NCBI RefSeq assembly: GCF_002813775.1
Contig: NZ_CP020370.1
Coordinates: forward strand, 4,055,501 to 4,119,500
Reading direction: 5' to 3'
Length of the DNA: 64,000 nucleotides
Source: Candidatus Thiodictyon syntrophicum
GTDB lineage: Bacteria > Pseudomonadota > Gammaproteobacteria > Chromatiales > Chromatiaceae
This document shows positions 30,395-64,000 of the stretch, in pieces (position 1 is the first letter of the stretch; each line of letters opens with the position of its first letter). The notes under the pieces were generated by a model that saw nothing but the letters and a program-made list of their open reading frames with translations, was not told the DNA's origin and ran no database searches. Position numbers and translations under genes: made by a program.

Positions 30395-31510
30395 CTAGCC
30401 GGCTGGCCTGGCCTGCCTTAGCTCGGGACCTAGGGCAAGCCGGAAACCGTCGAAGAGGTGGCGGAGGCCGGGGGCGAAGTGGGAGCGGTACGCGGAGCGC
30501 AGGTCCCGCGCCCCGTAGAACCAACTGCCGCCGCGCAGGACACGACACCCGCCTGAGGCAGGACCGCCAGGGTCGGCGATTGGCCCCGCCTCATAGTGCC
30601 CAAACCACCAATCCTGACACCACTCGCAGACGTTGCCGTGCATCTCGCACAGGCCCCAGGGGTTAGGCGGGAGGCTGCCTACCGGAACTGTCTTGTCAAC
30701 GTAGTTGGCCTGGCCGGTCGAGAGGGTCTCGCCGAAGTGGAAGGGGGACGCAGTCCCGGCCCGGCAGGCGTATTCCCACTCTGCCTCCGTGGGCAAGCGA
30801 TAGGGCCGACCGGTCTGCGCAAACAGCCATTGGCAGTAGGCCAGCGCGTCGTCCCAGGTCACATCGACGACGGGACGGCGACCGCGACCCCAGCCCTCAT
30901 CGCCCTTGTCCCGCCCGGTGGCGGCACAAAAGGCGTCGTAATCGTCGAAGGTGACGGCATAGCGCCCGATGGCAAAGGGGCGGGAGATGGTCACCGGATG
31001 CTGGGGGCCTTCAAAGTCAAAGCGCTGCGCCTCCCCCGCCGGCGAACCCATGAGGAAGCGGCCGGCGGGGATGATAACCATCTCGGGACCCTGGTCGATC
31101 ACCATCGCGGCCTTTCCTAAGACCCCGGCAAAGAAACTTCGTGGCAGTTTCACTGGCGAATTAAGGGGATCACGGAAGACGACGGGCCGCCCCAGGGCCT
31201 GGGCGACGGACCGTTGCAGCTCCTGGACCTTGGCGGCGGGCCAGCCGTGGATGTCCGGTAACTCGGGCGCCACCGGCGGGGGCGGTGTCTCCACCCGCCG
31301 CACCGGACCCGCACCCAGCATCTCCGCGGCGAATCGCTGTGCGGCGCGCAGATCGTCCGGCACCAGGATCGGGTAGACCTCAATGATCTGCGCGTCCGAC
31401 TCGCCGGCCGCCTGGCGCTCCAGGATCGAGCGCACGGTGATCCGCGTCCCGGCGACAATCGGCTCGCCTTTCATAATGTTGGGGTCAGATACGATCTTCC
31501 GGCCAGTCAT
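30395..31510 (-). CDS. DUF433-FGE/C-type-lectin fusion protein with DGR-like variable region
   Basis: A 371-residue protein whose ATG follows GGGAGACCCACG. Residues 5-60 form a DUF433 domain (IVSDPNIMKGEPIVAGTRIT, ILERQAAGESDAQIIEVYP), normally a small antitoxin-like winged-helix module. Residues 140-365 are an FGE-sulfatase/CLec domain: MVIIPAGRFLMGSPAGEAQR, PYRLPTEAEWEYACRAGTA, NPWGLCEMHGNVCEWCQDWW and RVLRGGSW. The end (SWFYGARDLRSAYRSHFAPG, GFRLALGP) has the layout of DGR-diversified CLec proteins, with almost every exchangeable codon NNC. It is probably a ligand-recognition protein rather than a true formylglycine enzyme. Fusion to DUF433 is unusual. Confidence 0.88.
   Translation of the reverse strand: MTGRKIVSDPNIMKGEPIVAGTRITVRSILERQAAGESDAQIIEVYPILVPDDLRAAQRFAAEMLGAGPVRRVETPPPPVAPELPDIHGWPAAKVQELQRSVAQALGRPVVFRDPLNSPVKLPRSFFAGVLGKAAMVIDQGPEMVIIPAGRFLMGSPAGEAQRFDFEGPQHPVTISRPFAIGRYAVTFDDYDAFCAATGRDKGDEGWGRGRRPVVDVTWDDALAYCQWLFAQTGRPYRLPTEAEWEYACRAGTASPFHFGETLSTGQANYVDKTVPVGSLPPNPWGLCEMHGNVCEWCQDWWFGHYEAGPIADPGGPASGGCRVLRGGSWFYGARDLRSAYRSHFAPGLRHLFDGFRLALGPELRQARPAG
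30421..30538 (-). other. DGR-like variable region 1 with terminal conserved block
   Basis: A 118-bp segment from CTGCGCGGCGGCAGTTGG to the conserved 28-bp block at 30421-30448 (GGTTTCCGGCTTGCCCTAGG and eight more bases). Fourteen codons between them differ from the two sister genes, and here thirteen read NNC (TTC, TAC, GAC, TAC, TCC, CAC, TTC, GCC, CTC, CAC, CTC, TTC, GAC) and one GGG. Constant codons between them are unchanged. This matches adenine-directed mutagenesis of AAC codons in a template repeat. Confidence 0.8.
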
Positions 31511-31994
31511 CGTGGGTCTCCCATGTTGCGTTCAAGTCGCGGGATGAAATGGTCCTTGAGGCATTTCACGGCCCCCGGCCATCGGTGAGCCCAGTGCCGA
31601 TGATCCGCCTGACCGTCATGCCGATGTTCCCCTGCGCCTGCGGTTTTCGCGCGGCGATTTTACCGCCCCGGGGCAGGGCCGCGGCAAGTCATCCGCCTCG
31701 CGGGCGGTCAGGCGGCGACGCGCGTCGGCCTTGATCATAATCCCGGCCACTGCGCTGACCGCGAGGCCGCTGGTCCGCTATGCGGACCGATCACGGCCGG
31801 CCGGAACGATGATCCAGGCCGCCGCGTCCGGCTAACGGCCATGGCGCCCGCGCCACCCCGAAAGATGAAAGTTGCGGGCGCCATGGCCGTTCCCTCACCC
31901 CGCCCTCTCCCAGAGGGAGAGGGGGAATTGGAGCGCGCTCCCGGCGCGACTTTCACGGTAAAGCCTCGACCTCCGGTCCGTGGTATGTCCGCAC
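31511..31994. other. Repeat-rich intergenic region
   Basis: No gene is supported. It holds a 94-bp element at 31727-31820 whose ends (GGCCTTGATCATAATCCC and GATGATCCAGGCC) resemble the 29747-29870 MITE, with a GGTCCGCTATGCGGACC REP in its middle. It also holds an 18-bp perfect inverted repeat (31834-31851 with 31874-31891, AACGGCCATGGCGCCCGC), a CCCTCTCCCAGAGGGAGAGGG palindrome near 31907 and a family P half-site at 31961. Confidence 0.6.
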
Positions 31995-32915
31995 TCAATT
32001 CCCCTCCCGCAACTCCTTGACCTGCGCCTCGCTCAAGCCGGTCTTCTCGGCCAGCAGCCGGTCATCGGTGATCAGCCCCAGGAGGCTGCGGGCAATGCGC
32101 AGTCGCTCCTGCTGCTGCCCTTCCTCTCGGCCCTCCTCCCGGCCCTCCTCCCGCCCCAATTTCAGCCCCTGGTGCATCCCCCAGCCATAGGATGACTGCA
32201 CCATGCTCGCCTGCTGGTGCAGATCGTCCTGATAACGCTCATAGGCCTGCCGTTCGGCCTCCGGGAGCCGCAGGATATCCAACTGCTCCTTGGCCTCTTG
32301 CAGTCCCCGCGCCCGGAAGCCGTCCGGCACCTCCTCGTGCTTGAGGAAATAGATCCACTCGTCCAGGGAGTCGCGGGCCACGTCGTCGAACTGGTTGACC
32401 TTGATCAGATAGTATTCCGGGAACAGCGCATGGGGTTCCTGGCGCCGGTAAAGGTCCTGCTGCGCCTCGCTCAGTTGCAATTCATCGTGGCGATGCATCC
32501 CGATAAAGCGGGTGGCGCCGTGATAGACATAATCTTCGCCCTGCCCCAGGTCGAAATACAGAATACTGACCGAGATGACCTTGACGACCTCGCCATAGGG
32601 CTGGCCCTCCTGGAGGTTTTCCACCAAGGTGCGCGCCGTACTGTGCAGAATCCGCTGCAAATAGTCGAACTGCCGCTGGTACTGCACCTCAATGAGGATG
32701 ATCTCGCCGCCGGCATTGCGCGCCTTCAGGTCCACCCGGTTCTGTTTGTCGAGCGCCGTATCCTTGTTGCTTTCGCCCTCCAGGACTTCGAGGATCTGAA
32801 TGTCCTCGCGCAGCAGCTCGCTCAAGAACCCTTCAAGGATGCCGAAGTGGGCCTTGCTGCGCAGGAGGCGCTTCATCGCCCAGTCGAAGCTGATCAGGCG
32901 GCGGGGGCGGGTCAT
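31995..32915 (-). CDS. Rpn family PD-(D/E)XK nuclease / transposase-like protein
   Basis: A 306-residue protein. The N-terminal nuclease core has FDWAMKRLLRSKAHFGILEGF, NRVDLKARNAGGEIILIEVQ (D...E-x-Q catalytic pattern) and LYFDLGQGEDYVYHG, typical of the Rpn/PDDEXK_2 family. The C-terminal third has an REEGREEGREEG run followed by QQQERLRIARSLLGLITDDRLL and a short helix-turn-helix-like SEAQVKELRE that is common in this family. Such proteins are abundant in Chromatiaceae and act as recombination-promoting DNA nucleases in E. coli. It stands alone between two intergenic regions. Confidence 0.88.
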   Translation of the reverse strand: MTRPRRLISFDWAMKRLLRSKAHFGILEGFLSELLREDIQILEVLEGESNKDTALDKQNRVDLKARNAGGEIILIEVQYQRQFDYLQRILHSTARTLVENLQEGQPYGEVVKVISVSILYFDLGQGEDYVYHGATRFIGMHRHDELQLSEAQQDLYRRQEPHALFPEYYLIKVNQFDDVARDSLDEWIYFLKHEEVPDGFRARGLQEAKEQLDILRLPEAERQAYERYQDDLHQQASMVQSSYGWGMHQGLKLGREEGREEGREEGQQQERLRIARSLLGLITDDRLLAEKTGLSEAQVKELREGN

Positions 32916-33322
32916 GGGCGTGGGCCCGCGTATGGCGCCGGCTGGTCGCGGCGGCGTCGTTGCGTGATAGTTGATGTCATCGTCGCTGCTGCCTTGGGTT
33001 GATGCTTGGGATCAAGAGGGGTGGGCGGACGGTAGGGTGTTCATTCTGCGCCTCTGGGAGCACAAGTCCGTCATGCGTTTTCTGTCGCGCCAAGAGGCAT
33101 AAGTACCATTTGTAATCAGTTGCTTACGCCCAATGTGCGCACCGGAAGGCGGGGGACGAAAAACTGCATGAAATGGCTCAGATTGAACAGCCTAGGCGGA
33201 CGGGGCCTTTGAATACCCAGGAAGATCAGTTTAGCCGCAAATTAACAAAAATAATCGAAGACTTAGCGTTTACAGCATGTTAACCGTCCGGATGACGCCC
33301 GCGATGATGCTAACCAGCAGAT
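32916..33322. other. Intergenic region with no recognised feature
   Basis: This 407-bp region separates the Rpn gene from the PIN-like/ATPase pair. Its right half is less GC-rich than the surroundings (for example AATTAACAAAAATAATCG near 33239) and carries no ORF of note, no member of the repeat families seen elsewhere and no clear promoter. Confidence 0.4.
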
Positions 33323-33829
33323 TTATTTGCGCCGCCGTGGAATCTCCGGCGGTGCCGCGGGCTCGTAGCCCTTCAAGCCCAGGTCACCAGTCAGAATCTC
33401 CACTCGGCAACTGGGTGCATGGTATTCCGCCACATCCTTGATGGTGATGTCCCCCATGGATATTTGCTTGGCGGCCAGCGCCGGCCAGGTATCAGCCAGG
33501 GTCTTGAGCCTTGCGGACGACCAAAGCTCCGACTGATGGGCGAAGGCGGCCCAGGGTGTCTCTTCATCCGCACTCTTGCGGATCAGATCAGCCAAGGCGT
33601 CCGCCCGCTCCTTGCGGCTACGGGGCGCTTGGGCGATGTGATTGCCGGTTTCGATGATCGAGGCCAAGGGCAGGACAAAAGTGGTGCCCGCTCGCGCCTC
33701 GGCGTGAATCTTCTCATCCACTCGCGGGCGGTCCCAGCGATCGTGGTCTGGACCGCAGGTCTCTTTCCCAGGGACATCCAGCCAGACGCAGAGAATGCTG
33801 GTATCGATGATCAGGACTTTGCGCATCAA
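33323..33829 (-). CDS. PIN-like domain protein paired with an AAA ATPase
   Basis: A 168-residue protein starting MMRKVLIIDTSILCVWLDVP, with the first acidic residue of a PIN nuclease fold. A later conserved acidic pair lies in SMGDITIKDVAEYH and EILTGDLGLKGYEP. The middle contains VLPLASIIETGNHIAQAP, where the Glu matches the second metal ligand of PIN domains. Its start overlaps the stop of the ATPase gene by 4 nt, so the pair is co-translated. PIN-like nucleases next to OLD/AAA_21-type ATPases are found among predicted defence systems. That role is inferred. Confidence 0.72.
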   Translation of the reverse strand: MMRKVLIIDTSILCVWLDVPGKETCGPDHDRWDRPRVDEKIHAEARAGTTFVLPLASIIETGNHIAQAPRSRKERADALADLIRKSADEETPWAAFAHQSELWSSARLKTLADTWPALAAKQISMGDITIKDVAEYHAPSCRVEILTGDLGLKGYEPAAPPEIPRRRK

Positions 33830-35097
33830 TCACCGCCCTGTTCAATAGCCGATTCAATACGCCCTGCCGTGGCCAGTTGGCCCAACGCTCCCCCGGCCAT
33901 TAGTTTCGGCAACTGTTTGATATCTTCCAGTTGAGTCAGGCGGCTGGCCCCGGTGACGCTATCGCGGTGGGCTACGGTGATGAAGGGCAACATCCGGACT
34001 CCGGCGGCGTCCAACAGCGCCGGGTTGTGGGTCGTGACGATGACGTCGATGCCACGCTCCTTGCCCAGGGTCCGCAGCATCTCGATCAAGAGACCGGCGC
34101 GGGAGGGGTGAAGCCCGTTGTCCACGTCCTCGATGACCAGCAGGCTGCCGGGGGGGCGGATCAACATTGCCGTGACGATGGCAAGATAGCGCAGGGTGCC
34201 GTCGGACATGCCGCGGGCATCGATTTCGTGACTGGCGGCGCCTTCCCAGCCTTCCTCGCAATAGAGCATGGCGTCGGTACTGAGCCTGCCGACGGGCTCG
34301 GCCCAGACGCGTTTGATATCCCGCTCTGGAAGGGTCTTGAGATAGCGGGTCAGGGTTTGCTCAACCGCGGTATGGCGCTGCGGATCGAGGGCGGCGACGA
34401 CACCCGCGAGGTTGGCACCGTCAGCCATCAAGCGCTCCGACAACGCCGAATAGTTCCGCATCTGACTTGGGATGGGATCGAAAACGAAGATCTGATTCAA
34501 GTGTTGCGCAACGAGCCTTGCCGCGTCAGCCGCTTCCATTTCTCGGATCAAACCGTCCACCACTGGCAGGATACTGGAGACACGGCCCAAAATAGCGAGT
34601 TGCGTCGGTGGACGAGCGCTACCCGCGTGGATCGCGTAACCTCCGACGGTAATCCCTTGCTCGCGCGCGGTCACTGCGGCTTTCGTTGGTTGCCGCCAAA
34701 TCAGCGGCTTCTCGGCGGCCGCTGCCGCGCCCGACGCATACGCGATCTCGGTCAGCTCCTCGTCGACCGTTTCCGTCGTCACGCCCTCCGTTCGGACCCT
34801 GATCCGATAACGAAGGTCCTGGCGTTCGGAAACGCCGATCAGCACCTCCAGCGTGAACTCCAGCGCCGGCCTGCGGCAGATCCACTCCGCTCCACCCCGG
34901 AGCGGAGACAGGGCATCGTTGCCTTTGATCGCTTGATCGACGTCGATACCCGACGCGATCCGCTGCAGGAACGACAGCGCTTCCAACAGATTGGACTTAC
35001 CACTGGCATTGGTGCCGATGACGATCGTAAGCGGGTCGATATAGAGGGTCGCGTGATCGAAACTCTTCCACTGTGCGACCCGAAGTTCTTTGATCAT
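33826..35097 (-). CDS. AAA_21-type ATPase (SMC/RecF-like)
   Basis: A 423-residue ABC-like ATPase. It starts MIKELRVAQWKSFDHATLYI, with Walker A IGTNASGKSNLLEALSFL, a signature-like ARGMSDGTLRYLAIVTAML, Walker B SLLVIEDVDNGLHPSRAGLL and the switch His in VIVTTHNPALLDAAG. The coiled-coil arms of true SMC proteins are replaced by a short insertion (about 90-280). No TOPRIM domain follows, unlike OLD nucleases, so the nuclease activity is likely supplied by the overlapping PIN-like gene downstream. The pair is a good candidate for a two-gene anti-phage or toxin system. Confidence 0.85.
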   Translation of the reverse strand: MIKELRVAQWKSFDHATLYIDPLTIVIGTNASGKSNLLEALSFLQRIASGIDVDQAIKGNDALSPLRGGAEWICRRPALEFTLEVLIGVSERQDLRYRIRVRTEGVTTETVDEELTEIAYASGAAAAAEKPLIWRQPTKAAVTAREQGITVGGYAIHAGSARPPTQLAILGRVSSILPVVDGLIREMEAADAARLVAQHLNQIFVFDPIPSQMRNYSALSERLMADGANLAGVVAALDPQRHTAVEQTLTRYLKTLPERDIKRVWAEPVGRLSTDAMLYCEEGWEGAASHEIDARGMSDGTLRYLAIVTAMLIRPPGSLLVIEDVDNGLHPSRAGLLIEMLRTLGKERGIDVIVTTHNPALLDAAGVRMLPFITVAHRDSVTGASRLTQLEDIKQLPKLMAGGALGQLATAGRIESAIEQGGD

Positions 35098-35149
35098 CGG
35101 CTTCTACCTTTGACAGGGGGCGAATGCGGTGGGCCTGACCACCCGCGCC

Positions 35150-38100
35150 TTAGGTTCCGGCATCCACGCCGGGACGCTGCTCGCCAAGCATCCGCAAGGC
35201 CGTCGGGAGCGGGGACTGGCCGGGCAGCGCCTCGTCCGCCCGCCCCCGCTGCCCCCGCGGCACCAGCCGCCGCAGCAGGCGCAGCAGGTCATCGACATAG
35301 GTGAAGACGACCGGGATGACCAGCAGGCTCAGGAAGGTCGAGGTAATGAGCCCGCCGATGACTGCAATCGCCATCGGGGAGCGGAAGCTCGGTTCGGCGC
35401 CGAGCCCGAGCGCCACCGGCAACATGCCGGCGCCCATGGCGATGGTGGTCATGACGATGGGGCGGGCGCGTTTGTGGCAGGCGTCCAGGATGGCGGGGCG
35501 GCGCTCCATCCCGCGTTCGCGCCGCGCCACGATGGCGTATTCCACCAACAGGATGGAGTTCTTGGTGACGATGCCCATCAGCATCAGGACGCCAATGATG
35601 GACGGCATGGAGAAGCTGTTGTGGGTCAGCAGCAGGGCGATGAAGGCCCCGCCCAATGAGAGCGGGAGCGCGGTCAGGATAGTGACGGGTTGCAGGAAGT
35701 CATGGAAGAGCAGGACCAGCACCACATAGATACAGAGCACGCCGATCAGCATGGCGGTGCCGAAGGAGGCGAAGAGCTCATTCATGCGCTGGGCGTCGCC
35801 CTGCGCGATCCGGGTCACGGCGGGCGGCAGGTCCTGGAGCGCGGGCAGGGCCTCGGCCTCGTCCAGGACTGAACCGAAGAGGCGCCCGCCGAGTTCCACA
35901 TCAATGGTGACGGTCCGCATCCGGTCCACCCGGTCGATCTGGGCCGACCCGCTGCCGAGCGCGAGCGCCGCCACCGCGGAGAGCGGCACCGAACCGGTCG
36001 TGGCCGGGACGCGCAACTGGGCGATGGCGTCAAGGTCCGTACGCAGCGACCGGTCCAGGCGCACGCGGATGGGGATCTGGCGCTGCGGCAGGTTGAGCTT
36101 GGGCAGGTTGACCTTGAAGTCACCGGAGGTCGCGACCCGCACCGCGCCGGCCAGGGCGGAGGTGGTCACACCCAGGTCCGCGGCGCGGGCGAAATCGGGC
36201 CGGATCTGGATCTCCGGGCGCTGCAGGCTGGCCCCGGAGGTCACGTTGCCGATCCCCTGCAGGGTACGCAGGTCCCGCACCACCGCCTGCGCGGCGGTGG
36301 CGAGCGCGTTGGGGTCGTCGCTCGCCAGCGTAATCTGGAGCTTCTCCCCGCTCTGGCCGGCGCCGATGGAGACCCGGGTGCCGGGGAGTACCCGCAGGCG
36401 CTCGCGGACCTCGCGCTCGATCTGCGGCTGGGTACGGGCGCGGTCGTGCCGATAGATGAGCTTCAGGCTCAGGTTCGCCAGGCGCACGTCCTTGGCCGCG
36501 CCGTCCCCCATCGGACCGGCACCGGAGGCGCTGCCCACCGCTGTGAAGATGCCGGTGACCTCCGGGACGGGCGCGATCAGCCGCCGCGCCTGCTGCGCCG
36601 CGCGTCGCGTGTCGTCCAGTGAACTGCCGGGCGGCAACTCCAGCTTGACGCTGAAGAGTCCGCGGTCCGCCGCCGGTACGAAGCCCTTGGGCAGCAGCGG
36701 GATCAGTTGCATGGACCCGACGAAGAACGCGATGGCGACCAGCGCGGTCGTCTTGCGATGGTCCAGGCACCAGCCGGCGGCGGCCAGATAGCGGGTCATG
36801 ATAAAGCTGTCGGTATTGCCCTCCGGATGGGGCTTCAGGAAATAGGCGGCCATCATGGGGGTCAGCAGGCGCGCCACCATGAGCGAGGCAACCACCGCCA
36901 CCGCGGCGGTGATCCCGAACTGGACGAAGAACTTGCCCGGCACCCCGCCCATGAAGGCGGTCGGCAGAAAGACCGCGACCAGGGTGAAGGTGGTCGCGAT
37001 GACCGCAAGCCCGATCTCGTCCGCCGCCTCCATCGCCGCCTGGAAGGGCGGTTTGCCCATGCGCAGGTGACGCACGATGTTCTCGATCTCGACGATGGCA
37101 TCGTCCACCAGGATGCCGACCACCAGCGCCAGGGCGAGCAGGGTCAGGACGTTCAGGCTGAACCCCAGCACCAGCATGACGGCGAACGTAGGGATGATCG
37201 AGAGCGGCAGGGCGACGGCCGCGATCAGGGTGGCGCGCCAGTCACGCAGGAACCACCAGACCACCAGGATCGCCAGCAGCGCGCCCTCGTAGAGCAGTTC
37301 CATGGACCCCAGGTAGTTGTCATACACCGGGTCGACGGTGTTGTAGGCCTCCCGGATCTGTACCTGGGGGAACAGGACGCCCAGGTGATCCAGGGCCGCC
37401 TTGACCGCCCGCGCGACCGCCACCTCGCCGGCCCCCTTGATCCGGGTCACCTCGAAGGCGACCACCGGGGCCTCGTCCAGCAGGGCGTAGGAGCCGCGCT
37501 CGGCAAAGCTGTCGCTGATGGTGCCCAAGTCCTGCAGGCGCACCCGGCGACCGTCCGGCAGCGGAATCGTCAACTCCGCGATCCCGGCCACGGTGTCCAC
37601 GGCGCCTAAGCTGCGCACCGACTGCACGGCCCCGCCGATGTCCCCGCGCCCGCCGGAGGCGTCCTGCTGGACGCGCTTCAACTGGGCGGAGATGGCCTCG
37701 GCCGTCACCCCCAGCGACTGCATCCTGGCGCTGTCGAGATCCACATGGACCTCCCGATCCACGCCCCCCACCCGTGCCACCCGGCCCACTCCCTTGACCG
37801 CCAGCAGCGCCTTGGCGACCTCGTTGTCGACGAACCAGGACAGGGCCGACTCGTCCATCCGCGGGGAGGCCACGGTATAGGTCGCGATGGGCGAGCCGGC
37901 GGTGGTGACCTTGGAGACGATCGGGTCCGTCATGTCCTGCGGCAGGTCGGCGCGCACACTGTCGACCGCGTTGCGCACCTCGTTCAGGGCCACCTCGGTG
38001 TCCTTGTCGATCTGGAACTCGACCCGGATGGTGGCGGAGCCGTCGGCAACGGTGGTGCGGATATGCTCGATGCCGCCCAGCGAGGCGATCTGGTCCTCGA

Positions 38101-38299: not shown

Positions 38300-38324
38300 A
38301 GAAACCTATACGCCGCAAAGAGAG

Positions 38325-40374: not shown

Positions 40375-40429
40375 GGACGGCGGCAGGTGCTGGATCAGCC
40401 GCTAAGTCTACTCCATCGCTGCGGTATTT

Positions 40430-54787: not shown

Positions 54788-54864
54788 GACTGCGTTCCCG
54801 TGTCGAATGGCATCAGGTATGCTAACAGATCGCTGCCCGGACGAACCCAACGCGGACCATCGCC

Positions 54865-55749: not shown

Positions 55750-55786
55750 CCCGGTGCGCGGCCCCGGGCCCGGCAGGCGTCTCCTC

Positions 55787-55919: not shown

Positions 55920-56736
55920 TGAAGTTTCTCCTGGGGTGGGGGGGCCTGGCCCTGGTCGGCCTGGCGGCACCGGTCAGCGGCGCGCCCGAGGCCCCCGCGG
56001 CAATGCCGGCCCCCGCCGGCCCCGCCCTGGACGACCCAACCGCCAGCCCCCTGCTCGACCGCCACTACCAGGCCGGCGACCCGGGCCAGCCCCCCCGCCC
56101 ACCCCGCCGCCCGGCCGCGAGGTCTTCACCCGGCGCTTCGAGATCGTCCACGCCGCCGCCGTCACGCCCGGCATGCGGGTCGCCGCCATCGGGGACGGCG
56201 ACGGACTCATCGCCGCCCTGTTCGCCCGCGCGGTCGGCCCCGAGGGGGTGGTCTATGGAGTCGTCCAGGCGGGGGACGGCGCCGTGGAGCGCATCGCCGG
56301 GCTCAACCGGGTCGTGCGCGACTACCGGGTCCCCAACCTGATCCCCACCCTCGCCACCGCGGCCGACACCGGGCTGCCGGCCGCCGGCATCGACCTCGCC
56401 TTCATCGCCACCGACGGGCAGCGGTCCGCCGACCCGCGCCCACTGCTCGACTCCATCCACACGGCGCTCGTCCCCTACGGCACCCTGATCCTCGTCGCCG
56501 CCCGCCCCGCGGCCGGGTCCAGGCGCACCGGACCGCCCGCCGCCGCCGCCCGGGAGGCACTCATCGCCGCCGTGCGGGCCGCCGGGTTCCGCCTGGTGGA
56601 AGAACCCGGATTCCTGCGCGAGAACGAGTTCCTGCGCTTCGAGAGGATCGGGGAGGAGCCCGCCGCGGAGGCTGGCAGCAGTCCGGCGGCGGCCGGCACG
56701 CCAACAGGTCAGGTGCAACCGCACATGGAAAGATAA
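55913..56736 (+). pseudogene. Exported methyltransferase-like protein, frameshifted
   Basis: One frame begins MAVKFLLGWGGLALVGLAAP (a good signal peptide) and reads to DRHYQAGDPGQPPRP. The domain then continues in another frame from EVFTRRFEIVHAAAVTPGMR to 56736. The shift falls in a C-rich run at about 56085-56100, where an indel or a sequencing error is plausible. The domain has the layout of class I SAM methyltransferases, but the glycine motif reads AAIGDGDGLIAALFARAVG and the usual acidic and YHHF-like positions are altered, so it may not bind SAM. The C-terminus is GFRLVEEPGFLRENEFLRFE. Intact relatives are about 230-270 residues. Confidence 0.65.
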
Positions 56737-57209
56737 AGGCCGGAAGAATGGTTATCCACAGATGAACACAGATGAACACAGATGATCCAAGAAAGGACAG
56801 TCATCCACGGATGAACACAGATTAACACAGAGAATTCATTGACTTACGCTTGGTCTGCGGCTCGCCTCGCCGGCGATGACGACATCAGCGATAGGCGCAC
56901 GACAATTCAAAGAAAAGCTGTGTTCATCTGTGGATTGTTCTTCTCGTTCCCACGCTCCCGCGTGGGAATGCCGTGCGGGCGCTCCGCGTCCGGTCTTCGC
57001 ACTGGACGCGGAGCGCCCGCACTTGCTCCCACGCGGGAGCGCAGGAGCGTGGGAGCCAGCGGCCAGCAGCGAGGCCGCGGCGGCTTGCGCGGTCGCGTCG
57101 CTGCGCGACCGGCACGGTCTCGCCGCGGGCGGCGGTGTGACCGCAGTCGAACCGGAGGTCGAGGCTTCAGCCGGACGGGCGGCCGACGTGGAGCGCGCCA
57201 CCCAGGGCC
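56737..57209. other. Repeat-filled intergenic region
   Basis: It contains direct GATGAACACA repeats (TTATCCACAGATGAACACAG, ACAGATGAACACAGATGATC, CACGGATGAACACAGATTAA; 56752-56830). A long GC hairpin follows whose arms read GCGGGCGCTCCGCGTCC and GGACGCGGAGCGCCCGC (about 56976-57024), with a CGTTCCCACGCTCCCGCGTGGGAA palindrome at 56945. A family P half-site lies at 57151. No gene is supported. Confidence 0.6.
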
Positions 57210-57491
57210 TCAGGCCGCCAGGTCCCGCACGGCCGCCTCCAGCACCTCCTGCGCAACCCCCCGCGCGCGCAGGGCCTCGAGCAAGCGTGCCGTCGGGTCC
57301 GCACCATAGAGCGCCTCGTCGCGGCGCAGCCCTTCGCTCAAATAGGACTTCAACAGCGTCTGGTACCCGGAAAACCCCTTGTGCGGGGCCAGGGCCTTCA
57401 GCGACTCCACCACGTCCACCGGGATGCGCAGCGTAATCGTGGTCATCGGCCGCTCTTTCGTCAGCCGTTTCTGCAAGCGTTCAGAGAGCAT
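57210..57491 (-). CDS. BrnA/CopG-like antitoxin
   Basis: The ATG at 57491 overlaps the end of the toxin gene by 11 nt, giving 93 residues. After a basic start (MLSERLQKRLTKERPM) comes a ribbon-helix-helix: TTITLRIPVDVVESLKALAP, then KGFSGYQTLLKSYLSEGLRR. A helical toxin-binding tail follows (ARLLEALRARGVAQEVLEAA). It should bind and neutralise the BrnT-like toxin encoded directly upstream and repress the operon through DNA binding. A second in-frame ATG (M16) before TTITLRIP is an alternative start. Confidence 0.82.
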   Translation of the reverse strand: MLSERLQKRLTKERPMTTITLRIPVDVVESLKALAPHKGFSGYQTLLKSYLSEGLRRDEALYGADPTARLLEALRARGVAQEVLEAAVRDLAA

Positions 57492-57774
57492 AGAGCGCCT
57501 CCTCTTCAGGTTCCGCGCGCCGCGCGGAGATGATGCGGATGTGCGAGGCGGTGACTTCGATGTGCACCACATACAGTAACCGACCGGTCGCGCCGAACCC
57601 GATGGCCGCGTCCCGCGCCTCATCGTTGCGGGCGGCATCCACCAGCACGAAGAGCGGATCGGCAAACACCGCCGCGGCGTCCTCGAAGCGCACCCGATGG
57701 GTTCGCCAGTTCGTCGCGGCCTTGGCCCGATTCCAGACGAACAGGTCGCCGTTGCGCTCGAACGCGATGTCCAT
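57481..57774 (-). CDS. BrnT-family toxin
   Basis: A 97-residue protein of the BrnT fold (RelE-like RNase). It has FERNGDLFVWNRAKAATNWR (F-x-W-D/N-x-x-K-x-x-x-N-x-x-K/R-H family start), VRFEDAAAVFADPLFVLVD, then RLLYVVHIEVTASHIRIISA and RRAEPEEEALY, with the conserved I-R-I-I-S-A-R-R catalytic strand and Arg pair. It inhibits translation by cutting RNA when not bound by the antitoxin. Toxin first, antitoxin second with overlap is the standard BrnT/BrnA order. Confidence 0.88.
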   Translation of the reverse strand: MDIAFERNGDLFVWNRAKAATNWRTHRVRFEDAAAVFADPLFVLVDAARNDEARDAAIGFGATGRLLYVVHIEVTASHIRIISARRAEPEEEALYAL

Positions 57775-58238
57775 TGATGGGAATCTAGCAGACGTATTTA
57801 CTTTGTCAATATAAACCCCCGTGGGAGCCAGCGTATTCCTGATAACGCATCAGGGGATCAAGTCCTTTAGAGTCCATAAGGGGTCTCCGAGGTCGTCGTC
57901 AAGGTGGCAAGGATATCACCCTGCCCGCCCAGACTTAGCAATGCGCCTCGTCGCGCCCCGCGGGACCTTCTCGTTCCCACGCTCCCGCGTCACTGCCATC
58001 AAGTTAAGGCGCAGTGGCCACTGGGAGCGCCGCACCCCAGTGCGGCGCGGCCTCTGCTCAAGCCACACCGGCGGGGTTATCCGCGAGATCGCGCCGCACT
58101 GGGGTGCGGCGCTCCCAGGCCATGCCGCACCGGAGGTCGAGGCTTCAGCCGGACGGGGCGACGGCGGGGCCTGGGGTTGGGGTGGGACCGGCGCCTCCTC
58201 ACGCCCCGCGGGACCTGACCGCCCGCGCCTTCCGCTCG
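57775..58238. repeat. Intergenic region with family R, P and border repeats
   Basis: An AT-richer pocket just left of the toxin start (57775-57820, GTATTTACTTTGTCAATATA) is the likely toxin-antitoxin promoter. Then come a CGTTCCCACGCTCCCGCGT palindrome half (57972), the CACTGCCATCAAGTTAAGG border (57990), the second 94-bp family R hairpin (58023-58116) and a family P half-site (58130-58153). No gene is supported. Confidence 0.65.
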
Positions 58239-58266
58239 CTACCGCTCGCTCCCTGCGCGGGCAGTC
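58217..58266 (-). other. Hairpin downstream of FGE variable region 2
   Basis: Arms GACCGCCCGCGC and GCGCGGGCAGTC as at 30334-30382, with a loop of TTCCGCTCGCTACCGCTCGC type. Here the FGE gene's stop codon (58239-58241) lies within the loop, so the left arm in transcription order is translated (ERGRTARAGSER). Confidence 0.65.
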
Positions 58267-59195
58267 CGGCCCCGCTCCCTGCCTGGCTGCCCGGCCTGCC
58301 CTGCCGGCCTGGGCTCGGGACCTAGGGCAAGCCGGAAACCGTAGTCGCGGTTGCGGTTGCCGGGGCCGAGGCGGCCGCGGTACGCAGAGCGCAGGCCCTG
58401 CGCCACGTTGGCCCAACTGCCGCCGCGCAGCACACGCCACTCGCCAGAGTCAGGCCCAACCGGATCGGTAGCCGGACCGGACGGATAGTCGCCATACCAG
58501 TCACTGCACCACTCCCAGACGTTGCCGTGCATCTCATACAGACCCCAGGGGTTGGGGGGCAGGGAGGCGACGTCCAGGGTCTCTTCCCGATACAGCCCCT
58601 TGCGGTCGCCGCGGTAGGGGTAGTTGCCGTTGTAGTTGGCCTGCTCCGGGCTGAGGTCGTCGCCGAAGGAGAAGGGGCCGGTGGTGCCGGCGCGGCAGGC
58701 GTATTCCCACTGCGCCTCGGTCGGCAGTCGCAGGTGCTGGTCGGACGCTTGGTCAGCATCGACCCCGCCCAGGCGTCGGGTCGCACGCCGGCCCGCAAAG
58801 GCCGCAAGCTCGGCATCGAGCCGCTCGATGAAGCCCTGCACGTCATCCCAGGAGACGTTCTCCACCGGCCGCCGCTCGCCCTTGAAGTCGCTCGGATTCC
58901 CGCCCATCACCGCCTGCCAGAGGGCCTGGGTGCAGGCGGTGTCCGCCAGCCAGAAGCCGCGGGTCAGCAGCACCGGGTGCCGGCGCTCGTCACTGGAGCG
59001 CCCGTGCTCGCCTTCGGGCGAGCCCATCAGAAAGGGCTCAGGCGTCGGCGGTATCCACCGGAAACCCTGGCGCGCGCCCTTGTAGGTGAAGGCCTGCCAG
59101 AGGCCGAAGGGGTCCTCGCCCCAGTCGCTCGCCCAGGGGGCGGGGAACTGGTCGGGGGGCGGACCCGGGGGTGGCGAGGGGGGCGGACCGGTCAC
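58239..59195 (-). CDS. FGE/C-type-lectin-fold protein with DGR-like variable region, possibly 5'-truncated
   Basis: The frame is open to 59822, but the upstream part translates REP repeats. The first sensible start is GTG 59195 (VTGPPPSPPPGPPPDQFP), giving 318 residues. A Pro-rich linker leads to the FGE domain: GFRWIPPTPEPFLMGSPEGE, RHPVLLTRGFWLADTACTQA, LRLPTEAQWEYACRAGTTGP, NPWGLYEMHGNVWEWCSDWY and RVLRGGSWANVAQGLRSAYR. Full-length relatives carry a large N-terminal domain like the gene at 61047, so this copy may have lost it through the REP array. The end (RNRDYGFRLALGPEPRPAG) includes the variable region and runs into the hairpin. Confidence 0.8.
   Translation of the reverse strand: MTGPPPSPPPGPPPDQFPAPWASDWGEDPFGLWQAFTYKGARQGFRWIPPTPEPFLMGSPEGEHGRSSDERRHPVLLTRGFWLADTACTQALWQAVMGGNPSDFKGERRPVENVSWDDVQGFIERLDAELAAFAGRRATRRLGGVDADQASDQHLRLPTEAQWEYACRAGTTGPFSFGDDLSPEQANYNGNYPYRGDRKGLYREETLDVASLPPNPWGLYEMHGNVWEWCSDWYGDYPSGPATDPVGPDSGEWRVLRGGSWANVAQGLRSAYRGRLGPGNRNRDYGFRLALGPEPRPAGQAGQPGRERGRTARAGSER
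58313..58430 (-). other. DGR-like variable region 2 with terminal conserved block
   Basis: A 118-bp segment aligned without gaps to those at 30421 and 61175. The exchangeable codons read GCC, AAC, GTG, GGC, TAC, GGC, CGC, CTC, GGC, AAC, AAC, CGC, GAC, TAC. Three of them are still AAC, the codon expected in a template. The 28-bp block 58313-58340 is identical in all three genes. Confidence 0.8.
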
Positions 59196-59429
59196 TGATC
59201 GGGCACCCGGCGCGCGGCGCGGCGCGGCCGCAGGCCGCTCCCACAGGGATCGGTGAGGCGGCGGCAACCCGCGCACCAACAAGAGGGCGGCCGGACGGCG
59301 AGCCTTCGGGGGGCATCCGCTACCCCTACCAACACACCGCCGGCCCTTTGCTTTTCGCCTGCGCCCCCCGCAATGGCAGGGCGGCAGGACCGGATGGCGG
59401 TCTGGTCCATGGGGCGGCATCCGCCGCCC

Positions 59430-59681
59430 GGTAGGGTCCGCTGTGCGGACCGGACACCCTCGCGGCCAACCGCAACGGCGGCGGTTCCGCGTTGCTGGTC
59501 CGCGCAGCGGACTACGGCAGCCGGAGCGACGGGCCACCCGTAGGGTCCGCTGTGCGGACCGAACACCTCCGCGGCCAACTGCAACGTCGGCGGTTTCGCG
59601 TTGCGGCTGGTCCGCGCAGCGGACCCTACGGGACCCGCCCGGACCGACGGGCCATCCGTAGGGTCCGCTGTGCGGACCGAA
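59430..59681. repeat. REP/BIME array on the 3' side of the RAYT gene
   Basis: Five copies of GTAGGGTCCGCTGTGCGG or its inverse GGTCCGCGCAGCGGACC (at about 59431, 59498, 59540, 59609 and 59657) alternate in orientation with 40-70 bp spacers, typical BIME arrangement. The stretch 59196-59697 contains nothing else supported, apart from a GGCCGCAGGCCGCTCCCACAGGG-type sequence near 59225. Confidence 0.85.
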
Positions 59682-59697
59682 GACCGCATCAGGTCCC

Positions 59698-60258
59698 TCA
59701 CCCCGGCTCCCCGAACTCATCCGCCAAGTCGCCGAATTCCAGCGCCGAGCAACCCCAATCCGCCGGATAGACACCGGCCCGCAGATACCGGTGAAACGAG
59801 GACCAGGGCCATTGCACCGCACGGGCCGCGTACCCGTGCTTCACCGGGTTGTAATGGAGGTAATCCAGGTGGTTGGCGAGGTCCTGCTCGCCCCGGATGC
59901 AGTGCTCCCAGCATTTGCGTTGCAACACCCCGCGGCGCCGATGGCGCCGCCGCGAGGCGGACACGGGCTGTTCCGCCCCGCCGCCGGCCAGCCACGCCTT
60001 GGTGAATTCCTTCTTGATCCAACCGATACGCCGCGGATAGGCGCAATCGCCCGCCGGCAGTCGCCACAGCGTATGCAGATGGTCCGGCAACAACACCATG
60101 GCGATGATCTCAAAGGGCCAGGTCTGCCGACAGTCGCGCAGCACCGGGCGCAGGATGGCCCGGCCCAACGGCGACGCCAGGATCGGCGCCCGCCCTTCGG
60201 TGACCAGGGTAAAGGCATAGGTCCCGCCGGGCACGAAGACACGCCGCCAATTGGACAT
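59698..60258 (-). CDS. REP-associated tyrosine transposase (RAYT)
   Basis: A 186-residue TnpA_REP protein. It starts MSNWRRVFVPGGTYAFTLVT. The HUH pair is in VLLPDHLHTLWRLP, the conserved WIKKEFTKAWL and RGVLQRKCWEHCIRGEQDLA follow, and the catalytic Tyr region is HLDYLHYNPVKHGYAARAVQ with WPWSSFHRYL. Such single-domain Y1 HUH enzymes cut at REP hairpins and are thought to spread them. REP arrays flank it on both sides (59430-59681 and 60364-60930), which supports it as the source of the REPs seen throughout the window. It appears intact. Confidence 0.93.
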   Translation of the reverse strand: MSNWRRVFVPGGTYAFTLVTEGRAPILASPLGRAILRPVLRDCRQTWPFEIIAMVLLPDHLHTLWRLPAGDCAYPRRIGWIKKEFTKAWLAGGGAEQPVSASRRRHRRRGVLQRKCWEHCIRGEQDLANHLDYLHYNPVKHGYAARAVQWPWSSFHRYLRAGVYPADWGCSALEFGDLADEFGEPG

Positions 60259-60363
60259 CCGCGGGACCCTCGGGTGGGAGGATAGGTGCCATTAGTTTAG
60301 CCGCCCGGGGCTGCGTTGCGTGGGGCGATGCCGTCGATCGGCGGTTGCGGGGTGCTTTGCTCC

Positions 60364-60930
60364 CTGGGTCGGCCCACCGTAGGGTCCGCTGCGCGGACCG
60401 CTGCATCCAAGACGCCCGATAGCCGCCCTGGAGATGGTCCATACGGCGCAATCAAGGGCGGGGGCACCGCGAGGGGCGGTCCGCACAGCGGACCCTACGG
60501 CGCTGCACCCGCGATGCCCGATGACCGCCCTGGCGATGGTCCAGACGGCGCAATCAGGGGCGGGGGCACCGCGAGGGGGCGGTCCGCGCAGCGGACCCTA
60601 CGGCGCTGCACCCACGACGGCGGATGACCGCCCTGGCGATGGTCCAGACGGCGCAATCAGGGGCGGGGGCGCCGCGAGGGGCGGTCCGCATAGCGGACCC
60701 TACGGGGCTGCACCCGCGACGCCGGATGACCGCCCTGGAGATGGTCCGCACGGCGCAATCAAGGGCGGGGGCACTGCGAGGGGTGGTCCGCACAGCGGAC
60801 CCTACGGCCCGTAGGGTCCGCTGTGCGGACCGCTGCACCCGCCACGCCCGATGACCACCCGCGAAGATGGTCCGCGCGGCACCAGCAAAGGCGGGGCAGC
60901 GCGGGGGTGGTCCGCGCAGCGGACCCTACG
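60364..60930. repeat. REP array with 102-103-bp tandem units
   Basis: Four consecutive units start at 60425, 60527, 60630 and 60732 (GCCCTGGNGATGGTCC), and a degenerate fifth is near 60855. Each holds CGGCGCAATCANGGGCGGGG and one REP (GGTCCGCACAGCGGACCC). The fourth unit contains an extra inverted REP, making it about 21 bp longer. The region 60259-60801 has no gene. The right end cuts into the HRDC-like gene start at about 60932. Confidence 0.88.
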
Positions 60931-61050
60931 GCGACCAGCGACCAGATGCCGGTCGACCGACAGGGTGCGGTATTGACCGAGCAGGCGATTGAGGTCCTCG
61001 GTCTGGGCATCCGGCTCCTGGACCGGGATCTGAAAGAATCGGTATTTCAT
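60802..61050 (-). pseudogene. Truncated 5' end of a DGR-type HRDC accessory gene
   Basis: An ATG at 61050 follows AGGAGG at 10 bp and overlaps the FGE stop (ATGA). The first 39 codons encode MKYRFFQIPVQEPDAQTEDL, then NRLLGQYRTLSVDRHLVAG. I recognise this as the N-terminal segment of the HRDC-domain proteins that accompany DGR reverse transcriptases. The identification is from memory of the family, not from a search. From about 60933 the frame continues only through REP sequence (RVRCADHPRA...) to a stop at 60802. The HRDC domain itself, and any avd or RT gene beyond, are missing, replaced by the REP array. Confidence 0.6.
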
Positions 61051-63998
61051 GTCCGCGTGCCTCCTGAGGTCCCGCGTGGCCTGACCGCCCGCGCCTTCCG
61101 CTCGCTCGCGCTCGCTCCCTGCGCGGGCAGTCCGGCCCCGCTCCCTGCCTTTGTCCCATTTCCTGCCTGGCCGGGCTCGGGACCTAGGGCAAGCCGGAAA
61201 CCGCAGTAATGGCCGCGGTCGCCGGGGACGCAGTGGAAGCGGGACGCGGAGCGCAGGCGCCGCGCCTCGTCGGCCCAACCGCCGCCGCGCAGCACACGCC
61301 CCTCGCCTGAATCAGCACCCTCAGGATCGACCACCGGACCGGTCGGGTAGTCCCCGAACCAGTCCTGACACCACTCATCGACATTACCGTGCATTTCGTA
61401 GAATCCCAAAGGGTTGGGAGGAAGGGAGCGGACAGCGACCGTTTCGCTGCCATTGTTTGCCAGCTTCGGATCGAAGTCGTCGCCGAATGAGTAGGCGGTC
61501 ATCGTGCCCGCCCGGCAGGCATATTCCCACTCGGCCTCGGTCGGAAGGCGAAACCGTAGGGTCCGCTGTGCGGACCTTTCTGCGGCATCCGGCAACGCCG
61601 GATCGACCGGCGCACCCAGCGAGGCGGCCAGTTCGGCATTCAGGCGCTCGATGAAACCCTGGACTTGCTCCCAACTGACCTGCTCGACCGGCCGTTGCGG
61701 TCCCTTGGCATGGCTGGGATTCTCGCCCATCACCGCCTCCCACAGGGCCTGGGTGCAGGCGGTTTCGGCCAGCCAGAAGCCGCGGGTGAGGATCACCTCG
61801 TGCTGAGTTTCATCGTCGAATCGGCCCTTCTCGGTCGGCGGCGAGCCCATCTGAAAGACGCCGGGCCAGACCCGCCGCAGGCCGATGGGAACGCCCTTGA
61901 TCGCGATCTCCAACCGCAGCCCATACCGATCGCGGGTCAGGGTCCGCCCAGTGCCCGCCGGGACCAGTCCAACCGACCGCAACGCCCTGAATTGCTGCAC
62001 GTCGATAAAGGTGCCGTGGCGATTCAAGGGCAGGCCGTCATGATCGTTGCGGCCGACACGTCGGCGTCGCGCACCGGAGGTCGAGGCTTTAGCCGGACCA
62101 GGGCCGCGCAGACGCGCCGTCGACCGGCTAAAGCCTCGACCTCCGGTCTTCTTCTGGTGGCCGGAACGGCGATCAAGGTCCCAGGGCGCATCCAGCGCCG
62201 CGCGAACCGGCAATCCGGGCCAGCGCAGCCACTCCAGGGGCGCGCACCAGTAGGCGCGCCGCTCGCCGTGGCCGTCGGTGAACCCGACGAAGAGCCCGTC
62301 GCCGTCGCGCCCCAGGGTGTGGGCCCAGGCGGGCCTGTCCATGGGCGCGATCAGCAGTTCCTCGAAGTCGGTGCGCAGGCGCCAGCCGGCCGCGTTCAGC
62401 GGCAGTGCGCTGGCGCCCCCGTTGGCCGGGTCCAGCCCCAGACTCTGCCAGGGGGCGCCGCCGCGGTTCTCCTGCGCATCGACCACGGGCCAGCCGGTAG
62501 GCATCTGGGAAACCACCGGGCTGCCGCTGCCGAAGGTCTCGGCGGGCGCCGCCGTGGACTCCCATTCCAGCCAGTCGCCGCGCTGGACCAGGCGCCAGGA
62601 GTGGGGTCGCTTGGGGCGGCCCGCGGCGGCCTGCGCACGGTAGATGTCGAAACCGGCGGGGTTCACGGAGCCTGAACGTTCGGCCTCGGGGTGGGCCAAC
62701 AGCCAGAGCCGATGGGAACTGGGGCTATGGTCCCAGGCGGCCCGGTCCAGGTGTCCGGCATGACTGGTGATCCAGGCCCCGAGCCAACGGGCGTGCTCGC
62801 CCTCGGCAGCGGCCTCGGTCAGGGCCGCCGCCACCTCCTGGTAGAAGGCCTCGGCCTCGGGGTCGGTGCGGCCGTGCGCCGCCGCCTGGAGCGCTCGCTC
62901 CTCCATGCGTTGTGAGCGCGTGCTGCCCTGTCCCTGCTGGGCGCGGATCAGGGCCCAGGCGAGGCGGCGCTCGTCCTCGTCGCCGGTAGTGGGAAAGGCC
63001 GCGCGCAGGCGCCCGAGTTCGGTGAGGTCGCCGGGGAGTAACGCGAAATCACCGGCGGTGAAGGCCGGATGCTGCCAGGCGGCGGCCTCACTGCCGGCGT
63101 CGGCCAGGTGCGCGGGCAGGCGGTGGCGCAGGTGCCGGAGCAGCGCCGGGCGGATGGCGACGCAGGCGCTGAGCAGGGTGAGCAGCAGGCGCGCCCCCGG
63201 GTCCTCTTGGATGGCCGCCGCCAGGTCCAGGGTTTGCGCAGGCCAGGGCCGCGGTCCGCCGGGCCGGGCGGGGATGCGGCTGCCCCGGTCCAGTGCCACC
63301 GGAAAGTAGAGCCCGGCCAGTTCCGGGTCCCACCAGCGGGGCGGACAGGGGGTCAGCACGACGGGGCGCCGACCGGTCCCGGCCAGTCGCCGGCCGAGCC
63401 GAACCCAGGCCTGGCGCTGGGCGGCGGTGCCCAGGCAGCCCAGGTCACCGGCGATCAGCACCGGGATGTCGGCGGCGGGCGGCACATAGGGGCGCGGCGG
63501 ACCCCAGGCCCCGGCCTCCCAAGGTTGAACGGGGCCGTCCGGCCCCTGGTCCATCCGCAGAATCTCCAGGCCAGTCCCGCCGCGCAGTCGCGGCAGGGCG
63601 GTCTTGAGTGCGTTGAAGTCGCCCCAGAAGGGGTAGAGCCGCGGGTGCAGGTCGAGGATGAGCTGACCCGCGGGGGCCCAGCGTTGACCCTTGAGGCGCG
63701 GTAGCCGCCGCAGGGGTTGGATGCGGCAGCAGGCCGCCACCAGCCGCGGCAGGTCGATACGGTTGCGCTCGGCCAGGTCGCCCAGGGCGGCGCGCAGGAA
63801 GGGCCAGAGACGCGGCCAGGGGATCAGGGGGGGCGGCGGACCCAGGGGCGCGACCGGCGGCTCTGGTTCGAGTTCAGGCTGCGGATCGGGTACTGCCAGT
63901 GGCGGCGCGAGCGTGCGACACTCGACAACGCGGTACTGGCGGTGGCATGGCGCGGCGGTTGCGGTTAGCGTCTCGCCTACGTGTGCCATGGCACGCAC
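61047..63998 (-). CDS. Large FGE/C-type-lectin-fold protein with DGR-like variable region (may extend beyond the window)
   Basis: At least 983 residues. The frame is open to the window edge, and candidate starts are GTG 63998 or ATG 63989. After a Pro-rich linker the N-terminal 550 residues have Rossmann- or vWA-like strands (IPVLIAGDLGCLGTAAQRQA, GRRPVVLTPCPPRWWDPELA) and a helical part of unknown family. The C-terminal FGE domain (about 690-940) has GVFQMGSPPTEKGRFDDETQ, LPTEAEWEYACRAGTM, NPLGFYEMHGNVDEWCQDWF and RVLRGGGWADEARRLRSASR. Two dispersed repeats are embedded in frame (62073-62147 and 61554-61576). The last 40 residues are hairpin-encoded. The stop overlaps the HRDC-like start. 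Confidence 0.85.
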   Translation of the reverse strand: MRAMAHVGETLTATAAPCHRQYRVVECRTLAPPLAVPDPQPELEPEPPVAPLGPPPPLIPWPRLWPFLRAALGDLAERNRIDLPRLVAACCRIQPLRRLPRLKGQRWAPAGQLILDLHPRLYPFWGDFNALKTALPRLRGGTGLEILRMDQGPDGPVQPWEAGAWGPPRPYVPPAADIPVLIAGDLGCLGTAAQRQAWVRLGRRLAGTGRRPVVLTPCPPRWWDPELAGLYFPVALDRGSRIPARPGGPRPWPAQTLDLAAAIQEDPGARLLLTLLSACVAIRPALLRHLRHRLPAHLADAGSEAAAWQHPAFTAGDFALLPGDLTELGRLRAAFPTTGDEDERRLAWALIRAQQGQGSTRSQRMEERALQAAAHGRTDPEAEAFYQEVAAALTEAAAEGEHARWLGAWITSHAGHLDRAAWDHSPSSHRLWLLAHPEAERSGSVNPAGFDIYRAQAAAGRPKRPHSWRLVQRGDWLEWESTAAPAETFGSGSPVVSQMPTGWPVVDAQENRGGAPWQSLGLDPANGGASALPLNAAGWRLRTDFEELLIAPMDRPAWAHTLGRDGDGLFVGFTDGHGERRAYWCAPLEWLRWPGLPVRAALDAPWDLDRRSGHQKKTGGRGFSRSTARLRGPGPAKASTSGARRRRVGRNDHDGLPLNRHGTFIDVQQFRALRSVGLVPAGTGRTLTRDRYGLRLEIAIKGVPIGLRRVWPGVFQMGSPPTEKGRFDDETQHEVILTRGFWLAETACTQALWEAVMGENPSHAKGPQRPVEQVSWEQVQGFIERLNAELAASLGAPVDPALPDAAERSAQRTLRFRLPTEAEWEYACRAGTMTAYSFGDDFDPKLANNGSETVAVRSLPPNPLGFYEMHGNVDEWCQDWFGDYPTGPVVDPEGADSGEGRVLRGGGWADEARRLRSASRFHCVPGDRGHYCGFRLALGPEPGQAGNGTKAGSGAGLPAQGASASERKARAVRPRGTSGGTRT
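61083..61132 (-). other. Hairpin downstream of FGE variable region 3
   Basis: Same arms as at 30334 and 58217 (GACCGCCCGCGC and GCGCGGGCAGTC), here within the coding region: it encodes part of the C-terminal extension LPAQGASASERKARAVRPRG. The outer bases GGCC...GGCC extend the stem. Confidence 0.65.
61175..61292 (-). other. DGR-like variable region 3 with terminal conserved block
   Basis: 118 bp. Exchangeable codons read GCC, GAC, GAG, CGC, TCC, TTC, CAC, TGC, GTC, GAC, GGC, CAT, TAC, TGC. The 28-bp block at 61175-61202 is identical to the other two copies. Two further A-containing codons vary by a single base: AGT to GGT in the GGSW/GGGW motif, and CAG or CGG before codon four. Confidence 0.8.
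61554..61576. repeat. REP inside the FGE coding region
   Basis: One full REP unit (GTAGGGTCCGCTGTGCGG core) lies within the FGE gene, encoding RSAQRTLRF just before RLPTEAEWEY. The sister gene at 58239 has a shorter REP-free joint (SDQHLRLPTEAQ) here. The frame is kept. Confidence 0.85.
62073..62147. repeat. Family P inverted pair inside the FGE coding region
   Basis: Perfect 24-bp arms at 62073-62096 and 62124-62147 (core GGAGGTCGAGGCTTTAGCC) around 27 nt, translated in frame as TGGRGFSRSTARLRG ... AKASTSG. The same repeat is intergenic elsewhere (30103-30190), so this is an insertion into an ORF that stayed open. Confidence 0.85.
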
Positions 63999-64000
63999 TT

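What the first reader, a model, noticed from the sequence alone, without database searches (positions are those of the whole stretch)
30421..61292. Three FGE/C-type-lectin genes carry variable regions with the codon signature of a diversity-generating retroelement
The 118-bp 3' segments at 30421-30538, 58313-58430 and 61175-61292 align without gaps. Fourteen codons vary. In them 38 of 42 triplets are NNC (one of the others is CAT, three are the GGG/GTG/GAG set), and the differences sit in the first two bases. Intervening codons are unchanged except TCC/TCT, AGT/GGT and CAG/CGG. Position nine is GCC/GGC/GTC and position three GGG/GTG/GAG, exactly what single-adenine mutagenesis of GAC and GAG would give. 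An identical 28-bp block follows each. CLec/FGE proteins are the best known DGR targets. Inference: a trans-acting DGR elsewhere in the genome diversifies at least these three loci.
Basis: partly seen in the sequence, partly recalled or inferred. Interest (0 to 1): 0.95.

Follow-up and report, generated by a model that had tools for sequence, protein, structure and literature searches.

The report
Orphaned hypermutation targets, template lost
Three genes in this purple sulfur bacterium carry the marks of a natural protein-hypermutation machine, but in this genome the machine has been replaced by a transposase and repeats, while a close relative still has it intact, so the genes look like frozen leftovers.

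Summary
Three 118-bp minus-strand segments at the 3' ends of FGE/C-type-lectin genes align without gaps; 22 of their 26 variable columns fall on adenines of one or both of two template repeats (TRs) found in congeners. The genome is the complete Thiodictyon syntrophicum Cad16; three more genes of the family lie elsewhere in it. The cause lies inside the window. In congener G004 an accessory gene, a DGR reverse transcriptase and the TR sit between the same two target genes; its two VRs differ from that TR at 16 of 22 adenines and 0 of 92 other bases. In the window this core is replaced by REP-like repeats and a REP-associated tyrosine transposase; a 37-codon stub remains on one side and homology resumes within about ten bases past the TR on the other. 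So these are former DGR targets, orphaned and probably frozen. A related cassette sits in place of the RT in a second DGR lineage (Rhabdochromatium).

The parts
30421..30538 (-). VR1, including the 28-bp 3' block at 30421-30448
   Evidence: differs from the G004 TR at 15 of 22 A and 6 of 92 other sites
30395..31510 (-). remote target gene: DUF433 + FGE domain, 371 aa
   Evidence: DUF433 1.8e-17; FGE-sulfatase 4.1e-50
58313..58430 (-). VR2, including the 28-bp 3' block at 58313-58340
   Evidence: 11 of 22 A and 5 of 92 other sites differ from the G004 TR
58239..59195 (-). short (FGE-only) former cis target gene, about 318 aa from a GTG; the start is my choice, the open frame runs to 59822
   Evidence: FGE-sulfatase 1.8e-41
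59301..59432 (-). flank that follows the TR in G004; homology resumes here, within about ten bases past the TR
   Evidence: 97% identity over 132 bp
59433..59697 (.). REP-like inverted repeats (GGTCCGC..GCGGACC type) in place of the TR
   Evidence: limits by eye
59698..60258 (-). REP-associated tyrosine transposase (RAYT), 186 aa, in place of the DGR reverse transcriptase
   Evidence: NF047646, 164.6 bits, cut-off 80; Pfam Y1_Tnp below its cut-off
60259..60939 (.). array of REP-like inverted repeats
   Evidence: limits by eye
60940..61050 (-). 37-codon stub of the DGR accessory gene (HRDC-like; label recalled)
   Evidence: 91.9% identity to residues 1-37 of the G004 protein
61175..61292 (-). 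VR3, including the 28-bp 3' block at 61175-61202
   Evidence: 15 of 22 A and 5 of 92 other sites differ from the G004 TR
61047..64000 (-). long former cis target gene (N-terminal part without Pfam match, C-terminal FGE); the open frame runs on to 64274, beyond the window
   Evidence: FGE-sulfatase 4.5e-38

Best explanation
The three segments are variable regions of a diversity-generating retroelement of the MoxR-ATPase conflict-system type. The ancestral order was MoxR-like ATPase, long target (VR3 gene), HRDC-like accessory gene, DGR reverse transcriptase, TR, short target (VR2 gene); the same VR-bearing FGE end sits on other proteins elsewhere (VR1 gene and three more), which were presumably rewritten in trans. 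The RT copied the TR RNA with errors at adenines and the copy replaced the VR upstream of the shared 3' block (mechanism taken from known DGRs, inferred here). In this genome a REP/RAYT cassette has taken the place of the accessory-gene tail, the RT and the TR, so the six targets are orphaned and their sequences probably frozen since the last rewriting. Shown: the VR pattern, the intact core in a congener, its replacement here, no TR found. Inferred: that rewriting has stopped in living cells, and that the proteins are sensors.
For: 22 of 26 variable columns on adenine sites of one or both congener TRs. G004, syntenic with 96% identical flank, has RT and TR between the same two targets, and its two VRs differ from the TR at 16 of 22 A and 0 of 92 other bases. 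Window VRs: 15, 11, 15 of 22 A against 6, 5, 5 of 92 others (Fisher P 3e-9, 3e-6, 9e-10). Homology to G004 stops at 60940 and resumes at 59432, with repeats and a RAYT between. No TR by five searches of the own genome. RAYT orthologues (74-86%) at the same locus in G002, G003 and G007, none in G004. G002 keeps a TR beside the RAYT, with a base at codon 6 that none of the 23 other rows shares. In-frame RT, TR and VR in the same order in Contendobacter, RT 75.5% identical.
Against: No strain-level or population data for this species; other cells could keep an intact core, as reported for Thiohalocapsa PB-PSB1. The window VRs carry few lesions (3 of 16 non-A differences from the G004 TR are singletons, the other 13 lie at codons where the two congener TRs also differ), so loss could be recent. 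One of 11 RT matches (C2:266743, 60 of 205 positions) was not examined. Similarity searches list at most 40 matches per genome. G004 is the nearest relative by flank yet has the core, while more distant species share the RAYT, so one simple vertical loss does not fit.
Confidence: 0.87

Rival explanations
1. One reading: the loci are being diversified now, in trans, by a complete DGR elsewhere in the genome.
For: Three DGRs with IGxxxSQ RTs and their own TRs are present, and trans activity is reported for PB-PSB1.
Against: Their TRs do not match the constant positions of these VRs, and no fitting TR was found in 3 contigs.
Confidence: 0.06
2. No DGR: ordinary paralogues whose ends are kept alike by gene conversion, with positive selection at some codons.
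For: The six copies share the block after the VR, so exchange among them is possible and could still shuffle them.
Against: Variable columns coincide with adenines of a separate TR in a congener, and synonymous change is nearly absent in the VR but common upstream.
Confidence: 0.02
3. Allele swap rather than simple loss: the core and the REP/RAYT cassette are alternative contents of one locus, exchanged by recombination between lineages.
For: G004 and the window are 96% identical in one flank but 88% and 77% in the target genes, while more distant species share the RAYT at the same place.
Against: The break points differ (accessory-gene stub of 37, 66, 67 residues in window, G002, G003, no match in G007), which looks like erosion. 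The RAYT tree is poorly supported (2 of 8 inner branches).
Confidence: 0.2

Closest known systems
Thiohalocapsa PB-PSB1 DGR 8 and clade 5A DGRs (Dore et al. 2024, PMC10907252; abstract, passages and sections 6, 7, 13, 18 seen)
   Same: MoxR-like ATPase beside a long target with an N-terminal extension without known domain, a second CLec-only target, RT between; repeat arrays that replaced the RT or TR at other PB-PSB1 loci.
   Different: Here the replacing cassette is REP-like repeats with a RAYT gene, it recurs in several species, and accessory-gene stub and post-TR flank remain. Clade membership of the RT was not tested with a tree. Thiodictyon is not named in the main text.
VMAP / MoxR ternary conflict systems (Kaur et al. 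2020, PMC7159879; passages only)
   Same: MoxR-like ATPase with a DGR-diversified FGE-type sensor; Lamprocystis is named for the vWA-MoxR system.
   Different: No vWA domain matched in the long target here; Thiodictyon is not named.
DGR-A, DGR-B and DGR-C of the same genome
   Same: FGE targets, IGxxxSQ RT, TR with A at variable sites.
   Different: Complete, with TRs of different sequence from the window family.

Membership tests
DGR (variable regions) | VR differs from a TR at adenines of the TR, not elsewhere | tested here: met
   Against the TR of a congener: 15, 11, 15 of 22 A; 6, 5, 5 of 92 non-A. The own TR is not found, so the strict test on own TR cannot be made.
DGR (variable regions) | VR at the 3' end of a C-type-lectin/FGE domain | tested here: met
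   Pfam FGE-sulfatase in all six genes
DGR (complete, active element) | TR present | tested here: not met
DGR (complete, active element) | Cognate IGxxxSQ RT present | tested here: not met
   Nearest RT in the own genome is 51% identical to the G004 one and has another TR; replaced at the locus
DGR (complete, active element) | VR diversity among cells or strains | not testable with these tools
   one genome per species held
RAYT / REP element | Y1-type REP-associated transposase flanked by REP palindromes | tested here: met
   NF047646 above cut-off; inverted repeats on both sides. Pfam Y1_Tnp is below its cut-off (20.1 against 23).

The most novel reading that the evidence does not exclude
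REP/RAYT cassettes repeatedly replace the reverse-transcriptase core of DGRs in purple sulfur bacteria (two DGR lineages in two genera, from inside the accessory gene to near the TR) and act as a switch that freezes a hypermutated receptor repertoire, perhaps reversibly, by exchange with core-bearing strains.
Probability: 0.15. Interest if true: 0.7.

Novelty: new member of a known kind. Interest (0 to 1): 0.5.

Why it matters
Template codons predicted from the variable regions alone were found in a relative, and the loss of the machine can be placed to within bases. The genus gives a series (core intact; RT lost with TR left; both lost) in which one can ask what becomes of hypermutated receptors once hypermutation stops, and whether REP/RAYT elements are a common way for DGRs to die. 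It also shows that a VR signature alone does not prove an active DGR.

Tried and rejected
Looked for a TR for these VRs among the genome's other DGRs: DGR-A (C1:2.23 Mb), DGR-B (C1:3.50 Mb) and DGR-C (C1:2.97 Mb) each have a TR of their own, none fitting. DGR-B's VR shows 4 of 99 non-A mismatches over the 122 bp compared, 0 within 90 bp. The RT inside the window (about 2080-2754, minus) is group II-like by motif. The TR-VR scan of L061 (RT at C1:5.51 Mb) found none.

Considered that this RAYT occurs only at DGR loci: not so. With a cut at E 1e-55, 10 of 210 family genomes have a match; of the seven at 66% identity or more (the window's included) five are at DGR loci and two (G151, G197) show no FGE, accessory gene, RT or MoxR match in the 11-14 kb fetched; the three at 51-53% show none either. 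The RAYT tree is too weak to order the insertions. In the 80 MoxR loci kept of 215, a RAYT match lies in 6, five of them without an RT match, one (L151) with; 18 of 80 have an RT match and 16 of those 18 a TR-VR pair by scan, so RAYT is no general substitute for the RT.

Error found and mended: my query for the short target was translated one base out of frame, so the hits called FGE or vr2 there are not used; one search repeats the search in frame (FGE match in 71 of 80 loci, 18 of 18 with an RT). Rows dropped: one search compares only copies with a GGT(T/C)TCCGGC anchor and fewer than 60 mismatches, so the more distant hits (L083, L086, L087, L089) are not in it. The label HRDC is recalled; the one homologue scanned (DGR-A) had no Pfam family and the G004 protein was not re-sent after frame errors.

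Full report
What was checked. The three 118-bp segments exist as stated, on the minus strand, gap-free, ending in an identical 28-bp block. In the 90 bp before the block 17 codons differ, 16 of them in positions 1-2. Variable columns by codon position are 10/14/2, while 162 aligned codons upstream in the same genes give 65/66/109; synonymous change is in 1 of 14 identical-residue codons in the segment and in 47 of 72 upstream. Ordinary paralogues do not diverge like this.

Where it is. The window is G000:C1:4055501-4119500 of a genome of 7,738,984 bases in 3 contigs, C1 being 6,837,296 bases long. The same two numbers are printed for Thiodictyon syntrophicum Cad16, a complete chromosome with two plasmids, growing as single cells or aggregates (PMC5944118, passages). 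The words retroelement and reverse transcriptase do not occur in the main text of that paper, and a search for Thiodictyon with diversity-generating retroelement found 0 papers.

The genome's own DGRs. Of 11 RT matches I looked at 10; three have an IGxxxSQ motif, and the eleventh (C2:266743, partial) was not examined. DGR-A (L053) has a TR at 8088 and two VRs that differ at 13 and 14 of 26 A and 0 of 98 other sites; DGR-B (L059) has a TR at 4839 and a VR with 12 of 23 A and 4 of 99 other differences (12 and 0 within 90 bp); DGR-C (L060) has a TR with two VRs, 9 and 17 A and 0 other differences in 90 bp. None of these TRs fits the window VRs (for A and B; C's TR is seen). Three further genes carry the window's VR family, at C1:1396040, 1187749 and 1504431; the first codes for a TIR + FGE protein. 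No TR of this family appears. The six best matches of the genome to VR1 and to the G004 TR are the six VR genes, next after them another FGE gene or the DGR-A TR; a VR pattern with up to 3 mismatches finds the six only, and a TR pattern finds none.

The missing core in relatives. All 8 genomes held for the genus have a match to VR2; the TR pattern finds 2 of 8. In G004 the contig L092 is syntenic with the window (96% over 3.4 kb of flank, 88% in both target genes, 77% in the N-terminal part of the long one). It holds long target, accessory gene, RT with PIGSLTSQ and YMDD, TR and short target. Its two VRs each differ from the TR at 16 of 22 A and 0 of 92 other bases, and keep the T of the template's AAT codons. 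The window VRs differ from that TR at 15, 11 and 15 of 22 A and at 6, 5 and 5 of 92 other sites (Fisher P 3e-9, 3e-6, 9e-10). With both congener TRs, 22 of 26 variable columns fall on 23 adenine sites of 90 (P 6e-16).

How the core was lost. Homology of the window to G004 runs to 60940, inside the accessory gene with 37 codons left, and resumes at 59432, within about ten bases past the TR. Between lie about 1.5 kb of REP-like inverted repeats and a 186-aa REP-associated tyrosine transposase. Congeners form a series. Its TR has a base at codon 6 that none of the 23 other rows shares, and 5 and 4 non-A mismatches to its two cis VRs, hence looks decayed. G003 and G007 have the RAYT and no RT or TR match at the locus; in G003, whose locus is split over two contigs, repeats run straight into the last bases of the TR and its flank. 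G005 has both targets adjacent and no RT, accessory gene or RAYT match between. All but G000 are drafts of 210-910 contigs, so absences there are weaker evidence. G004 lacks the RAYT orthologue (best match 44%, elsewhere).

A second case. Rhabdochromatium marinum DSM 5261 (L214) has another MoxR-target locus (MoxR 49.5% identical) in which an accessory-gene fragment is followed by a RAYT 68% identical to the window's and then by a TR; that TR has 14 of 26 A and 4 other mismatches to its VR, and a TAG in its reading frame. So the same kind of replacement is seen in another DGR lineage. It is not a rule: two of the seven closest RAYTs of the family are not at DGR loci. Searches of the paper library for diversity-generating retroelement with REP-associated tyrosine transposase, RAYT or Lamprocystis gave 0, 2 and 1 papers. 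In one of the two RAYT papers the word is a list entry among neighbours of RTs (one passage); the other I saw in the listing only. The Lamprocystis paper I saw in passages.

Function. The long target lies beside a MoxR-like ATPase (AAA_5, 5e-12) and a TIR + phosphoesterase protein, both just beyond the window. This is like the clade 5A DGR loci of Dore et al. 2024 (PMC10907252; abstract, passages and sections 6, 7, 13, 18 seen), who propose that such targets are antigen sensors and report that repeat arrays replaced the RT or TR at some PB-PSB1 loci. Of 80 MoxR-related loci kept from other genomes 18 have an RT match, 16 of these with a TR-VR pair. In Contendobacter (L138) the order is the same and the RT is 75.5% identical to that of G004. 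So the window's loci are most likely DGR-made sensors whose diversification has stopped; that they are expressed or sense anything is not shown.

Verdict. As repeat-driven loss of DGR parts is already in print, I file this as a new member of a known kind; the recurring RAYT in the place of the RT is the least expected part.

Noticed in passing
L053 5835-9351, L059 2862-4960, L060 about 2860-6960 (own genome C1:2.23, 3.50 and 2.97 Mb): Three complete DGRs in the same genome, with their own TRs and VRs that differ (within 90 bp) at TR adenines only; one has an Avd-like gene by eye.
   Followed up: partly
L214 8355-9737: Rhabdochromatium marinum DGR with RAYT in place of the RT and a decayed TR left behind (4 non-A mismatches, in-frame TAG).
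   Followed up: partly
window 62031-62178: About 147 bp with a dispersed repeat (GGAGGTCGAGGCTT type) interrupt the alignment of the long target gene with G002, G003 and G004, yet the frame stays open.
   Followed up: no
L054 2974-4197: Remote target of the same VR family that is a TIR + FGE fusion protein.
   Followed up: partly
window 1735-3009, minus: Group II intron-like reverse transcriptase (QGGIVSP, YADD).
   Followed up: no
window 30395-31510: The VR1 gene fuses DUF433 to the FGE domain and lies next to a PD-(D/E)XK nuclease family transposase gene (31995-32915).
   Followed up: no
L148, L177, L189: TR-VR pairs by scan beside MoxR genes without an RT match to my two RT queries; possible further core losses or distant RTs.
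   Followed up: no
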